Source of the DNA: Arthrobacter sp. C2
GTDB taxonomy: Bacteria; Actinomycetota; Actinomycetes; Actinomycetales; Micrococcaceae
Length of the DNA: 64,000 nt
Direction of reading: 5' to 3'
Assembly: GCA_024207135.1 (NCBI GenBank)
Contig: CP042428.1
Span: 3,100,001-3,164,000 of the forward strand
Part shown: positions 9,845-12,253 of the stretch, in pieces
Position numbering within the stretch: the stretch's first letter is position 1
Layout: the number at the start of each line of letters is the position of its first letter
Notes under the pieces: model-generated
Databases searched by the model: none
Told to the model about the DNA's origin: nothing
What the model saw: only the letters and a program-made list of their open reading frames with translations
Position numbers and translations under genes: made by a program

Positions 9845-10708
9845 ATGTCTTATGGACTGTCCAACCCGAACCAGGCCGCACAGGCCCCGGTCTGCCCCAG
9901 GCATCCCGACCGGATCTCCTATGTCACCTGCCAGCGGTGCTCCCGCCCGGCCTGTCCGGAATGCCAGGTGACTGCCGCGGTCGGAACCCAATGCGTGGAT
10001 TGCGTGCGCGAAGCCAACAAACAGATCCCCGGCACCCGGACCGTCTTCGGCGGCAAGGCCACCGACGGCCGGCCGATCGTCACCTATGTGCTGATCGCCA
10101 TCAATGCCGTGGTCTTCGCGCTGCAGATGACGATCCCGAGCTTCACCAACCACCTGGTTTACGCGGGACTGTACACCAGCGGATACTTCGAGCCCGAGCC
10201 GTGGCGGATGATCACCTCGATCTTTGCCCACTCCACTTCCTTCATCGGGCACATCGCCTTCAACATGTACGCGCTGTACATCTGCGGACGCGTGCTCGAA
10301 CCGATGCTGGGACGGCTGCGCTTCCTGGCCCTGTACCTGGTGGCCGGGTTGGGCGGATCCGTTGCGGTGCTGCTGATCACGGATCCCCGTGTCCCGGTCC
10401 TGGGCGCTTCGGGTGCGGTCTTTGGGCTGTTCGCGGCAATGTTCGTGCTCTTGCGTTCGCGTGGCGTCCAGTCGATGCAGATCGTCATCCTGATCGTCAT
10501 CAACCTGGCCATCGGCTTCATTTTCCCGGGCATCGCCTGGGAAGCCCATGTCGGTGGGATGGTCCTGGGCGCGGCAGTGGCGGCCGTCATGGCTTATTCG
10601 CCCAAGGGCCCCAGGCAGGCCGCCATGCAATGGGCAGGCACCGCCTTGCTGGTGTTGTTGCTGGTGGCCTTGACTTTGTACGGGGCCGTCAACGTTCGAG
10701 TTGGATAG
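9845..10708 (+). CDS. Rhomboid family intramembrane serine protease with N-terminal zinc finger
   Basis: Rhomboids cut transmembrane substrates inside the membrane. This 287-residue protein has a cytosolic N-terminal Cys/His cluster (residues 17-53: CPRHP, CQRC, CPEC, CVDC) that looks like a B-box-type zinc finger. Six or seven helices follow. The catalytic Ser189 is in GASGAVFGL and His235 in the helix reading WEAHVGGMVLGA. The HIAFNMYAL helix carries the conserved Asn. This zinc-finger-rhomboid build is common in actinobacteria next to cyclophilin and the gyr genes. Its substrate is unknown. The gene ends 27 nt before a DnaA-box cluster. Confidence 0.93.
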   Translation: MSYGLSNPNQAAQAPVCPRHPDRISYVTCQRCSRPACPECQVTAAVGTQCVDCVREANKQIPGTRTVFGGKATDGRPIVTYVLIAINAVVFALQMTIPSFTNHLVYAGLYTSGYFEPEPWRMITSIFAHSTSFIGHIAFNMYALYICGRVLEPMLGRLRFLALYLVAGLGGSVAVLLITDPRVPVLGASGAVFGLFAAMFVLLRSRGVQSMQIVILIVINLAIGFIFPGIAWEAHVGGMVLGAAVAAVMAYSPKGPRQAAMQWAGTALLVLLLVALTLYGAVNVRVG

Positions 10709-10734
10709 CCAGATCGGCACTAGCGGGACAAAAG

Positions 10735-11170
10735 TTGTCCACATGGGTTATCCACACTGTTAATAACTCACAACCATGTAATTCACCTGCAACGGACCGG
10801 CTCCAGCGCCCGCGCTGACGCCGGTCCGCTCTGGTTTTGGACAGCTTTCAATGAATATGCACAATTTCATCCACACCTGTGGATAACTTAGTGCACAACC
10901 TGTGCAGGGTCGCTTTGCGCCGTTCGAACATCGGCCGTGAGTAATCTTCGAAAGTATGAACTAATCCGCGTGAATACGCGGAAGCGGGAGGGTTCTCGGC
11001 CCCGCCCCGGCGCGTTGTCCACACTCCTTATCCACAGTGTTAATAACTTACGCACATGTAATTCACAATGGTCGAAACCGCGCCAGGACGATGATGTAGG
11101 TGCAAAAGGGGCGAAACCCACAGCCTTATCCCCACCTGTGGATAACCTTCGTGCACAGCATGTTCCTAAG
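10735..11170. repeat. Duplicated DnaA-box cluster (origin-like or titration site)
   Basis: The 579 bp between 10709 and 11287 have no gene but hold six exact DnaA 9-mers (TTRTCCACA): 10735, 10748, 11015 and 11028 on the plus strand, and 10878-10886 and 11137-11145 on the minus strand. One-mismatch boxes at 10867 and 11126 face the last two, forming head-to-head pairs. The layout is duplicated: the boxes at 10735 and 10748, GTTAATAACT at 10759 and ATGTAATTCAC at 10776 all recur exactly 280 bp later, and the inverted pair recurs 259 bp later. The main actinobacterial origin lies between dnaA and dnaN, probably just left of this window, so this would be a second cluster. It may titrate DnaA, regulate it or act as an origin component. 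Confidence 0.8.
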
Positions 11171-11287
11171 TTTCGACCGGTTCCGTGGTCGCGTCCACCT
11201 GTGCAGCACGGCAGAAAACTGGAAAGCTGGATTTCAGCTGGCGTGCAAGCGCGCCGAGCGAATCCACAACACCGCGGGAGAACTTCG

Positions 11288-12253
11288 ATGCACCAGAACT
11301 GGATCCACCTCGAGCACGTCGGTGCGTGGACCGAACTGACCAACAAATTGGCGGCAGTCGACGATACGGATGAATTCTACGAAGCCGAAGATTTGTTGGA
11401 GGAGCTCAACGAGCCGGGCGTCGATCCGGCACGAGACACCCTCGGGTTGTGGGACAAGGACACCATGGTGGGGTTCGGGCAGCTCCGGCTCGGGGAGCAG
11501 CTGCGCGACGGACGCGGACGCGTTTCCATTGGCGGTGGAATCGCACCCGAATACCGGCGCCAAGGCCATGGAACCTTGGTCATGGACGTTCTTGAAGCCA
11601 GGGCCGGGGAAAAAATGGCCCAACGGCACCCGGGCGTCGATTACACCATTGACGTGTGGGGAAACGCCCCGGGGCACAGTGCCGGAGCGATGGCGGTGGC
11701 ACGCGGTTATGAGCCGGCGCGCTTTTTTCAGGACATGACCCTGGTGCCGGGAGATTTCCGGCCCCATCGACGGCCGGCCAGCGTCCCGGAGGACACCGTG
11801 CTGGTTCCATACTCCCCCGGCATCGCCGAGGCCGTCAGGCTCCTGGACAACGAGGCGTTTGCCGACCATTGGGGCTCGGCCCCCAAAAGCACGGATGAGT
11901 GGGTGGCCATGACGGGTGCGCGTTCTTTCAGGACCAACTATTCCCGGGTCCTGCTCGAGGGGCACGGAGAGGACCGGCCGGCACGCGCGCTCAGCCACGT
12001 GCTGGGCGCCGAATGGGTTGGCAAGGAGCTGTACATATCCCGCGTGGGCACCGCGCGGGCCGCGCGGGGCCTCGGGTATGCGGCATGGACGCTCTCCACG
12101 GTGGTCGCTGCGGCCTTCGGCGACGGATTCACCAAGGTGGACCTGTCGGTGGATGCCCAGAGCCCCACGGGGGCCCTGGGGCTCTACGAACGGCTGGGTT
12201 TCAAGGTGGTCCGCCGTGGGACGGTCTACCGAAAGGCCGTCGCGGAGCTCTGA
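11288..12253 (+). CDS. Tandem GNAT-domain acetyltransferase
   Basis: This 321-residue protein carries two GNAT folds. The N-terminal half has the acetyl-CoA motif RRQGHG (about residue 90) and the C-terminal half has the weaker ARGLGYA followed by GALGLYERLGFKVVRRG, the usual end of an acetyltransferase. The tandem build resembles mycothiol synthase and related actinobacterial GNAT proteins, but sequence cues for MshD are not strong, so the substrate is left open. The frame is open further upstream through the DnaA-box region; ATG at 11288 was chosen because GGAGA lies 7 nt before it and the domain begins soon after. Confidence 0.85.
   Translation: MHQNWIHLEHVGAWTELTNKLAAVDDTDEFYEAEDLLEELNEPGVDPARDTLGLWDKDTMVGFGQLRLGEQLRDGRGRVSIGGGIAPEYRRQGHGTLVMDVLEARAGEKMAQRHPGVDYTIDVWGNAPGHSAGAMAVARGYEPARFFQDMTLVPGDFRPHRRPASVPEDTVLVPYSPGIAEAVRLLDNEAFADHWGSAPKSTDEWVAMTGARSFRTNYSRVLLEGHGEDRPARALSHVLGAEWVGKELYISRVGTARAARGLGYAAWTLSTVVAAAFGDGFTKVDLSVDAQSPTGALGLYERLGFKVVRRGTVYRKAVAEL

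What the first reader, a model, noticed from the sequence alone, without database searches (positions are those of the whole stretch)
10735..11170. Second DnaA-box cluster with a tandemly duplicated architecture, 8 kb downstream of gyrB
Six exact TTRTCCACA boxes lie within 411 bp; by simple base counting, one such site per about 65 kb is expected over both strands. Two near-identical modules exist: box pair, GTTAATAACT and ATGTAATTCAC repeat at exactly +280 bp, and a head-to-head box pair repeats at +259 bp. Conserved AT-rich elements next to DnaA boxes look like an unwinding or regulatory module and not random drift. The standard actinobacterial origin is between dnaA and dnaN, outside this window, so this may be a titration site (datA-like), a DnaA-reactivating site, one half of a split origin, or a relocated origin.
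Basis: partly seen in the sequence, partly recalled or inferred. Interest (0 to 1): 0.78.

Follow-up and report, generated by a model that had tools for sequence, protein, structure and literature searches.

The report
Ancient DnaA-box element near the origin
The sequence holds two tandem copies of an ancient DNA element that pairs binding sites for the replication starter protein DnaA with a second, unidentified palindromic site; relatives of the element occur in many actinobacteria close to the replication origin, and it is more likely a control site for DnaA than a second origin.

Summary
In detail: six exact DnaA boxes in 411 bp, in two near-identical modules offset by +280 and +259. The genome is a Paeniglutamicibacter relative. 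Its dnaA-dnaN gap lies 14 kb upstream and still has an oriC-like array. The cumulative GC-skew minimum falls on the cluster, but codon bias of gyrB/gyrA confounds it and other genomes disagree; skew is inconclusive.

What is new is the anatomy and its reach. Each module has a rigid ~50-bp element: DnaA box, second box, inverted third box, then a dyad AATnACAnnnnTGTnATT about 33 bp after the start of box 1. Elements of this design lie 3' of crgA in 75 of 125 class genomes tested, against 0 of 116 on the 5' side. A sequence model matches 194 of 197 family genomes. Of 18 strong-hit loci outside the class, 5 adjoin crgA and 5 more lie in its neighbourhood.

Best reading: an origin-proximal DnaA-control site (titration, or DARS-like), with a partner protein on the dyad. 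DnaA binding, function and partner are unproven. The closest published case, Streptomyces DnaA-box clusters, could not be read.

The parts
10735..10786 (+). Composite element copy A1: DnaA box 10735-10743 (+), DnaA box 10748-10756 (+), degenerate inverted box TGTTAATAA 10758-10766 (-), dyad 10766-10783
   Evidence: exact boxes; repeat D1; model R1 E 4.4e-10 in own genome (this copy was in the model); 96% identity among the seven nearest loci
10766..10783 (.). Dyad-symmetric site of copy A1 (consensus AATnACAnnnnTGTnATT), factor unknown
   Evidence: alignment A1 and column frequencies; genome search
10867..10886 (.). Module B1: head-to-head DnaA boxes TCATCCACA (+, one mismatch) and TTATCCACA (-), 2 bp apart
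   Evidence: block 10860-10892 is 99% identical among the seven nearest loci
11015..11066 (+). Composite element copy A2: DnaA box 11015-11023 (+), DnaA box 11028-11036 (+), degenerate inverted box 11038-11046 (-), dyad 11046-11063
   Evidence: model R1 E 3.7e-8 (this copy was in the model); block 11014-11066 90% identical
11046..11063 (.). Dyad-symmetric site of copy A2
11126..11145 (.). Module B2: head-to-head boxes TTATCCCCA (+, one mismatch) and TTATCCACA (-), 2 bp apart
   Evidence: block 11118-11150 is 92% identical
9845..10708 (+). rhomboid-family protease gene whose 3' end marks the element in Micrococcaceae
   Evidence: Pfam PF01694; synteny
11288..12253 (+). GNAT acetyltransferase gene downstream, between the element and crgA; found by tblastn at this place only in the seven nearest loci
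   Evidence: Pfam PF00583
15259..15555 (-). crgA, the neighbour of the element in most of the class (here 4.2 kb away)
   Evidence: Pfam PF06781

Best explanation
The cluster is an origin-proximal, non-coding control site for the initiator DnaA, and not the place where replication starts. Each copy of the core element would hold three DnaA molecules on boxes spaced about one or two helical turns apart (0, +13, +23; in many relatives 0, +10, +23), with one box facing two tandem ones, and a dimer of a second protein on the adjacent dyad. Because it is 14 kb from dnaA-dnaN it doubles soon after initiation. Bound DnaA would then be withheld from oriC (titration), or its nucleotide state changed as at datA/DARS, so that initiation is held back or re-armed; the dyad factor would gate this, as IHF/Fis do in E. 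coli. In this lineage the site was strengthened by tandem duplication and by a head-to-head box pair in each copy. Shown here: sequence, geometry, conservation, position. Inferred: DnaA binding, the dyad factor, and the regulatory effect and its sign.
For: Box density far above chance and conserved blocks with drifting spacers. Boxes 3' of rhomboid in 68 of 68 testable gyrA loci; in six Nesterenkonia loci with an inverted rhomboid gene, exact boxes lie 147-346 bp from its 3' end. Model R1: 194 of 197 Micrococcaceae genomes, 32 of 32 genera, E<=0.01 (match positions were not all checked). Class survey, 600 bp 3' of crgA: at least one exact box 81/125, at least two boxes with up to one mismatch 96/125, dyad 67/125; on the 5' side 1/116, 2/116, 0/116. 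Composite score at threshold: 75/125 sense; 0/125 after shuffling each region once; 0/116 on the 5' side. In relatives without the inserted genes the site lies between the 3' ends of convergent genes, so a promoter role is unlikely there. crgA lies 10-131 kb from dnaA in 28 of 28 single-contig genomes, median 34 kb. Box order matches the E. coli DARS core. A review states that datA-like DnaA-box clusters repress untimely initiation in B. subtilis and S. coelicolor (PMC5742627, passages). The dnaA-dnaN array is retained.
Against: No binding, ChIP or deletion data for these sites were available to me. DARS spacing is 14/12 bp and here 10/13 or 13/10, so the DARS likeness is one of order only, and in the window the third box is degenerate. 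All essential datA boxes point the same way; here they do not. 50 of 125 crgA regions score below the composite threshold in the sense direction, a few because contig ends cut them. The Streptomyces-sized family f21 has 3-6 boxes but no clear dyad, and none of its 7 genomes shown in the phylum scan matched R1. A 2017 review says the B. [quoted passage not shown] The GC-skew minimum of this genome falls on the cluster, and a codon-aware change point fits the cluster better than dnaA-dnaN; an origin would also explain both. Proximity to dnaA may follow crgA synteny alone.
Confidence: 0.62

Rival explanations
1. The cluster is a second or relocated replication origin, or one half of a bipartite origin with dnaA-dnaN.
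For: Cumulative GC-skew minimum of the 354-kb stretch at 3,111,311, about 170 bp past the last box. The codon-aware change point fits the cluster 9.3 log units better than dnaA-dnaN. Tandem boxes next to an AT-rich stretch; TTATTAACA occurs in both regions.
Against: At fourfold sites gyrA is C-rich in 79 of 80 and gyrB in 72 of 73 loci, Microbacteriaceae included, which drags any minimum to the right; the change-point optimum is at gyrA-DUF3566 (3,105-3,107 kb), not at the cluster. The minimum within the loci wanders between genomes; in G030 and G082 it lies near dnaA, in G017 the basin is flat. The genes dnaA, dnaN, recF, gyrB, gyrA and rhomboid would run head-on. No run of DnaA-trio-like triplets was seen beside the boxes by eye, whereas dnaA-dnaN has TTATTAACACTACTAA.
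Confidence: 0.08
2. The element is a transcription-control site: DnaA and the dyad factor act as regulators of a neighbouring gene (here the GNAT gene, elsewhere crgA or rhomboid).
For: Other dyads in this genome lie upstream of a glutaredoxin-nrdI-ribonucleotide reductase gene row (with a DnaA box in the same geometry), of a whiB-family gene, and of the second of two tandem NlpC/P60 genes, so the dyad looks like a regulator's operator. One weak promoter-like match in the cluster.
Against: In relatives without the inserted genes it sits between the 3' ends of convergent genes, and the downstream gene differs between genera while the element stays. Promoter-like matches are at shuffle level (1 against 0.6).
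Confidence: 0.13
3. The element is mainly a chromosome-organisation or segregation site: the dyad binds an origin-region organiser, and DnaA marks it as newly replicated.
For: crgA, its neighbour, is origin-proximal in 28 of 28 genomes; 18-bp dyad with balanced half-sites.
Against: The dyad is not a parS sequence (motif recalled). Isolated dyads lie at promoters. Proximity to dnaA may simply follow crgA synteny.
Confidence: 0.1
4. The boxes are passive remnants or chance accumulation without a function of their own.
For: 48 boxes are scattered over the genome; Streptomyces-sized genomes lack a clear dyad.
Against: Blocks 90-99% identical and spacers 54-69% among the nearest loci; rigid geometry in 23 families; reversed-pattern control zero in 197 and 396 genomes.
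Confidence: 0.02

Closest known systems
E. coli DARS1/DARS2 (DnaA-reactivating sequences)
   Same: Three-box core with one box opposite to two tandem boxes (my scan of MG1655, up to one mismatch: 0+, 14-, 26- in both; review statement); a flanking region or partner proteins contribute.
   Different: Spacing 10/13 (or mirrored 13/10) instead of 14/12; an unknown dyad instead of IHF/Fis sites; near the origin, whereas DARS lie at 17.5 and 64 min; ADP-release activity untested.
E. coli datA
   Same: Intergenic DnaA-box locus outside oriC with a partner-protein site.
   Different: Essential datA boxes all point the same way and need IHF; here orientations are mixed.
B. subtilis oriC-proximal DnaA-box clusters (DBCs)
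   Same: Clusters outside oriC whose joint deletion causes early initiation (PMC5295017, passages).
   Different: Six separate clusters; no rigid composite element with a dyad is mentioned in the passages seen.
Streptomyces coelicolor DnaA-box clusters (Smulczyk-Krawczyszyn 2006; cluster names H69, H24, D78 recalled)
   Same: DnaA-box clusters that repress untimely initiation (review statement). Streptomyces-sized family f21 has 3-6 boxes 3' of crgA, which may be one of these clusters.
   Different: The paper is not held, so identity with the crgA site is not tested; f21 lacks a clear dyad.
MtrA- or BldD-type operators of actinobacteria
   Same: An MtrA half-site (G/A)TnAC fits inside the dyad; MtrA binds oriC, the ripA promoter and whiB3 or whiB promoters in some species. 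BldD targets include whiB; the BldD half-site is recalled.
   Different: Published MtrA sites are direct repeats, whereas the frequencies here are dyad-symmetric; a 2026 paper lists whiB as an indirect target in S. venezuelae. The BldD spacer (recalled) is one base shorter.

Membership tests
Replication origin (oriC) | cluster of DnaA boxes | tested here: met
Replication origin (oriC) | DnaA-trio or AT-rich unwinding element next to the boxes | tested here: inconclusive
   GC 53% against 54% in the dnaA-dnaN gap; no run of trio-like triplets seen by eye, while dnaA-dnaN has TTATTAACACTACTAA
Replication origin (oriC) | location of the skew switch | tested here: inconclusive
Replication origin (oriC) | autonomous replication or marker-frequency peak | not testable with these tools
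   no read data or experiment
DARS | three boxes, one opposite to two tandem ones | tested here: met
   mirrored in the window copies, with a degenerate third box
DARS | conserved spacing 14/12 bp of the core boxes | tested here: not met
   10/13 or 13/10 bp here
DARS | promotes ADP release from DnaA | not testable with these tools
   needs biochemistry
datA | essential boxes in one direction | tested here: not met
   mixed orientation; datA description
datA | IHF site between the boxes | not tested
   not searched for
oriC-proximal DnaA-box clusters (DBC type) | several DnaA boxes outside oriC, near the origin | tested here: met
oriC-proximal DnaA-box clusters (DBC type) | deletion advances initiation | not testable with these tools
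   needs mutants
Known structured RNA | Rfam match | tested here: not met
   0 matches up to E 1 in window 10600-11400

The most novel reading that the evidence does not exclude
A single ~50-bp composite element (three DnaA boxes in fixed geometry plus an 18-bp dyad for a second, cell-cycle regulator) has been kept beside the origin since before the actinobacterial classes split, and is the phylum's counterpart of E. coli datA/DARS: a DnaA on/off switch coupled through the dyad factor to cell division, cell wall and nucleotide supply (whiB-type, NlpC/P60 and nrd promoters of this genome carry the same dyad).
Probability: 0.3. Interest if true: 0.88.

Novelty: new variant of a known kind. Interest (0 to 1): 0.74.

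Why it matters
How actinobacteria limit initiation to once per cycle is poorly known. A compact cis-element with exact geometry, shared by many families, gives a directly testable handle: delete 50 bp, watch initiation, and pull down the dyad-binding protein. It would also suggest that regulatory DnaA loci outside oriC can be very old, and that DARS-like box order arose, or survived, outside the proteobacteria.

Tried and rejected
Relocated origin by skew: the minimum at the cluster looked decisive. The fourfold-site model, orthologues in relatives and Pseudoglutamicibacter/NtRootA1 stretches showed that the method cannot resolve 14 kb. The codon-aware optimum lies at gyrA-DUF3566 (3,105-3,107 kb); the cluster fits 5.8 log units worse and dnaA-dnaN 15.1 worse, so by that measure the cluster fits better than dnaA-dnaN, but gyrA/gyrB codon bias drives this.

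GTTAATAAC as an unwinding element: rejected as the main reading, because in relatives the same position is an inverted DnaA box.

Structured RNA: no Rfam match. Promoter/terminator scan: nothing above shuffles.

Dyad as MtrA or BldD site: left open; half-sites fit, published arrangement or spacer does not.

Literature: ten searches were made. Those aimed at this locus were 19 (DnaA box, oriC, Arthrobacter), 34 (DnaA boxes, rhomboid, oriC), 43 (crgA, DnaA box) and 84 (DnaA ChIP-seq, Streptomyces); none of their listings showed a DnaA-box element at crgA or rhomboid. They cover open-licence papers only and the key Streptomyces paper is not held, so absence from print is not claimed.

Counts dropped: of 132 class genomes with a CrgA match, 127 loci were taken (five not fetched) and two short ones were left out, so n=125; a few of the 125 have the 3' flank cut by a contig end and count as misses. 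The 5' control has 116 because truncated loci were skipped. The composite threshold 16.8 was set after seeing the scores; shuffles and the 5' side were then scored with it. An antisense arrangement at threshold occurs in 12 of 125; overlap with the 75 sense hits was not separated. Model R1 was built from 65 elements out of these same loci, the window's two included, so hits there are by construction. One search lists only part of the non-matching genomes, and only part of the matches.

Corrected on checking: I had first written that the dyad at 3,248 kb is upstream of an NlpC/P60 gene tested; it lies 3' of that gene and upstream of a second NlpC/P60 gene.

Full report
1. Observation. Six exact TTRTCCACA boxes lie in 411 bp; 100 shuffles of the window give 0.39 on average and never more than 3. 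The 53-nt and 28-nt repeats recur at +280 and +259. Each module is: box, 4 bp, box, 1 bp, TGTTAATAA, then the dyad ending in TGTAATT, then 62-83 bp later a head-to-head box pair with a 2-bp gap. Among the seven nearest loci (L032-L038) the four box blocks are 96, 99, 90 and 92% identical to the window and the spacers 54-69%, which is the mark of selection on the boxes.

2. Place. The window is C1:3100001-3164000 of a 4,555,954-base contig. dnaA is at 3095205-3096557. gyrA has 99% identity to that of Paeniglutamicibacter psychrophenolicus. Order: gyrB, gyrA, DUF3566, tRNA-Ile, tRNA-Ala, an EamA-like gene (label by eye), cyclophilin, rhomboid, cluster, GNAT, LysE, argP-like, then crgA and sortase.

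3. Is it an origin? The dnaA-dnaN gap of this genome has two exact boxes, five with one mismatch, and TTATCCACAGTATCCACAGGGGTTATTAACACTACTAACC, which resembles a box pair followed by DnaA-trios (trio pattern recalled). Of 76 gyrA-anchored loci with dnaA and dnaN, 69 have two or more exact boxes in the gap and 58 the GTTATTAA/TTATTAACA motif. A 2025 paper places oriC of Kocuria rhizophila between dnaA and dnaN with DnaA-trio motifs, by annotation (PMC12500396, passages). The cumulative GC skew of 2.91-3.264 Mb has its minimum at 3,111,311, at the cluster. I first took this as support for a relocated origin. But gyrA is C-rich at fourfold sites in 79 of 80 loci and gyrB in 72 of 73, Microbacteriaceae included. 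A codon-aware change-point model peaks at 3,105-3,107 kb; it is 5.8 log units worse at the cluster and 15.1 worse at dnaA-dnaN, so taken alone it favours the right-hand side, for the same codon reason. The minimum within the loci lies at different genes in different relatives. In Pseudoglutamicibacter G030 and G082, with strong but blocky skew, it lies within about 10 kb of dnaA on the side away from the cluster; in Arthrobacter NtRootA1 (G017) the basin is flat. Skew is therefore inconclusive. Gene orientation and the intact dnaA-dnaN array argue for dnaA-dnaN as the origin; this is inference.

4. The element is old. In 80 gyrA loci from named genomes rhomboid was found in 69; 68 have enough flank, all 68 have at least one exact box within 2.5 kb 3' of it, and 63 have two or more. 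In Nesterenkonia, where the rhomboid-cyclophilin block is inverted, exact boxes lie 147-346 bp from the 3' end of rhomboid in all six loci that hold it. A strict pattern (two mismatches) hit 62 of 197 family genomes and the reversed pattern none. At three mismatches 32 of 396 order genomes matched, including another family (f43) in which the third box reads GTGGATAAC, and the reversed pattern matched none. That variant showed that TGTTAATAA is best read as a worn inverted DnaA box.

5. Class and phylum. Using CrgA as an anchor (132 of 138 class genomes; 125 regions analysed), 600 bp 3' of crgA has at least one exact box in 81, two or more boxes with up to one mismatch in 96, and the dyad in 67; the 5' side gives 1, 2 and 0 of 116. 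The composite (box 1, third box, dyad 32-34 bp after the start of box 1) scores above threshold in 75 of 125 (23 families), in 0 of 125 shuffled copies and in 0 of 116 5' regions; on either strand 25 of 36 families are represented. The middle box takes one of two forms: inverted at +10 (41 of 75) or direct at about +13 (34 of 75), sorted by family with two families mixed. Sequence model R1 matches 194 of 197 family genomes and 32 of 32 genera, and 90 of 246 phylum genomes at E<=0.01; part of the latter hits are partial. Of 18 loci fetched around strong hits outside the class, 5 have crgA beside the element by tblastn and a further 5 have sortase, trpG or pknB of the same neighbourhood; 8 showed no such gene at E<=1e-3. 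So a phylum-wide spread is supported for part of the hits only, and the unnamed families could not be assigned to classes by name. Failures: the Streptomyces-sized family f21 has boxes but no clear dyad (none of the 7 genomes shown matched R1), and several f28, f29 and f19 genomes lack the composite.

6. Anatomy. Column frequencies of 65 elements are dyad-symmetric: AATnACA-nnnn-TGTnATT, with A/T 0.98/0.92, A/T 0.97/0.89, C/G 1.00/1.00 and A/T 0.97/1.00 at mirrored positions. Elsewhere in this genome the dyad (one mismatch) lies at four further loci. At 547 kb it lies, with a DnaA box in the same geometry (R1 E 0.01), upstream of a glutaredoxin-family gene followed by nrdI and a ribonucleotide reductase gene. 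At 4,096 kb it is about 125 bp upstream of a whiB-family gene. At 3,248 kb it lies between two tandem NlpC/P60 genes, about 150 bp upstream of the likely start of the second (start chosen by eye). At 135.5 kb it has three exact boxes within about 0.5 kb and shares a stretch of sequence with the 547-kb promoter. This looks like the operator of a cell-cycle regulator. MtrA (oriC, ripA, whiB-type targets, but whiB indirect) and BldD (whiB target) are candidates whose published site arrangement does not quite fit.

7. Mechanism. Of the known extra-oriC DnaA loci, the box order is that of the DARS core (one box against two tandem ones; my scan of MG1655 gives 0+, 14-, 26- at both DARS; review text), not of datA (all one way). 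The spacing differs, so I do not file it as DARS. The origin-proximal location, doubling soon after initiation, suits titration or inactivation better than reactivation; E. coli DARS lie at 17.5 and 64 min, far from oriC. A review states that datA-like clusters repress untimely initiation in B. subtilis and S. coelicolor, while another stresses that the B. [quoted passage not shown] I therefore give most weight to a DnaA-control site whose sign is open: titration or inactivation about 0.4, DARS-like about 0.2.

8. Literature basis. PMC12500396, PMC6265350, PMC4585315, PMC5295017, PMC4285127, PMC5742627, PMC5650626, PMC13189361, PMC13270200 and PMC3937824 were seen as passages only; of PMC3411110 only reference-list passages appeared. 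The Streptomyces paper (J Bacteriol 188:6184) was not read; what I say of its cluster names is recalled.

Noticed in passing
G000:C1:547348-547398 (L324, L352): Third, weaker copy of the composite (DnaA box plus dyad) upstream of a glutaredoxin-family gene, nrdI and a ribonucleotide reductase gene.
   Followed up: partly
G000:C1:135501-136023 (L114, L332): Dyad and three exact DnaA boxes in a sequence that shares a stretch with the nrd promoter at 547 kb; looks like a duplicated promoter fragment.
   Followed up: partly
G000:C1:4096430-4096447 (L327, L353) and 3247997-3248014 (L331, L147): Near-perfect dyads with no exact DnaA box nearby, upstream of a whiB-family gene and between two tandem NlpC/P60 peptidase genes.
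   Followed up: partly
G000:C1:2997513-2997670 (L113): Another cluster of three exact DnaA boxes about 113 kb from the window cluster; context not examined.
   Followed up: no
G030:C1 and G082:C4 (L169-L185): Pseudoglutamicibacter has strong, blocky GC and AT skew that changes sign over tens of kb around the origin.
   Followed up: no
L093, L095, L096, L098, L099, L101: Nesterenkonia: the block from rhomboid to crgA is inverted relative to gyrA, with exact boxes staying near the 3' end of rhomboid.
   Followed up: partly
genome 3096789-3096830 (L112): dnaA-dnaN gap: TTATTAACA followed by CTACTAA, resembling a DnaA-trio run; the same 9-mer, inverted, is the degenerate third box of the window element.
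   Followed up: partly
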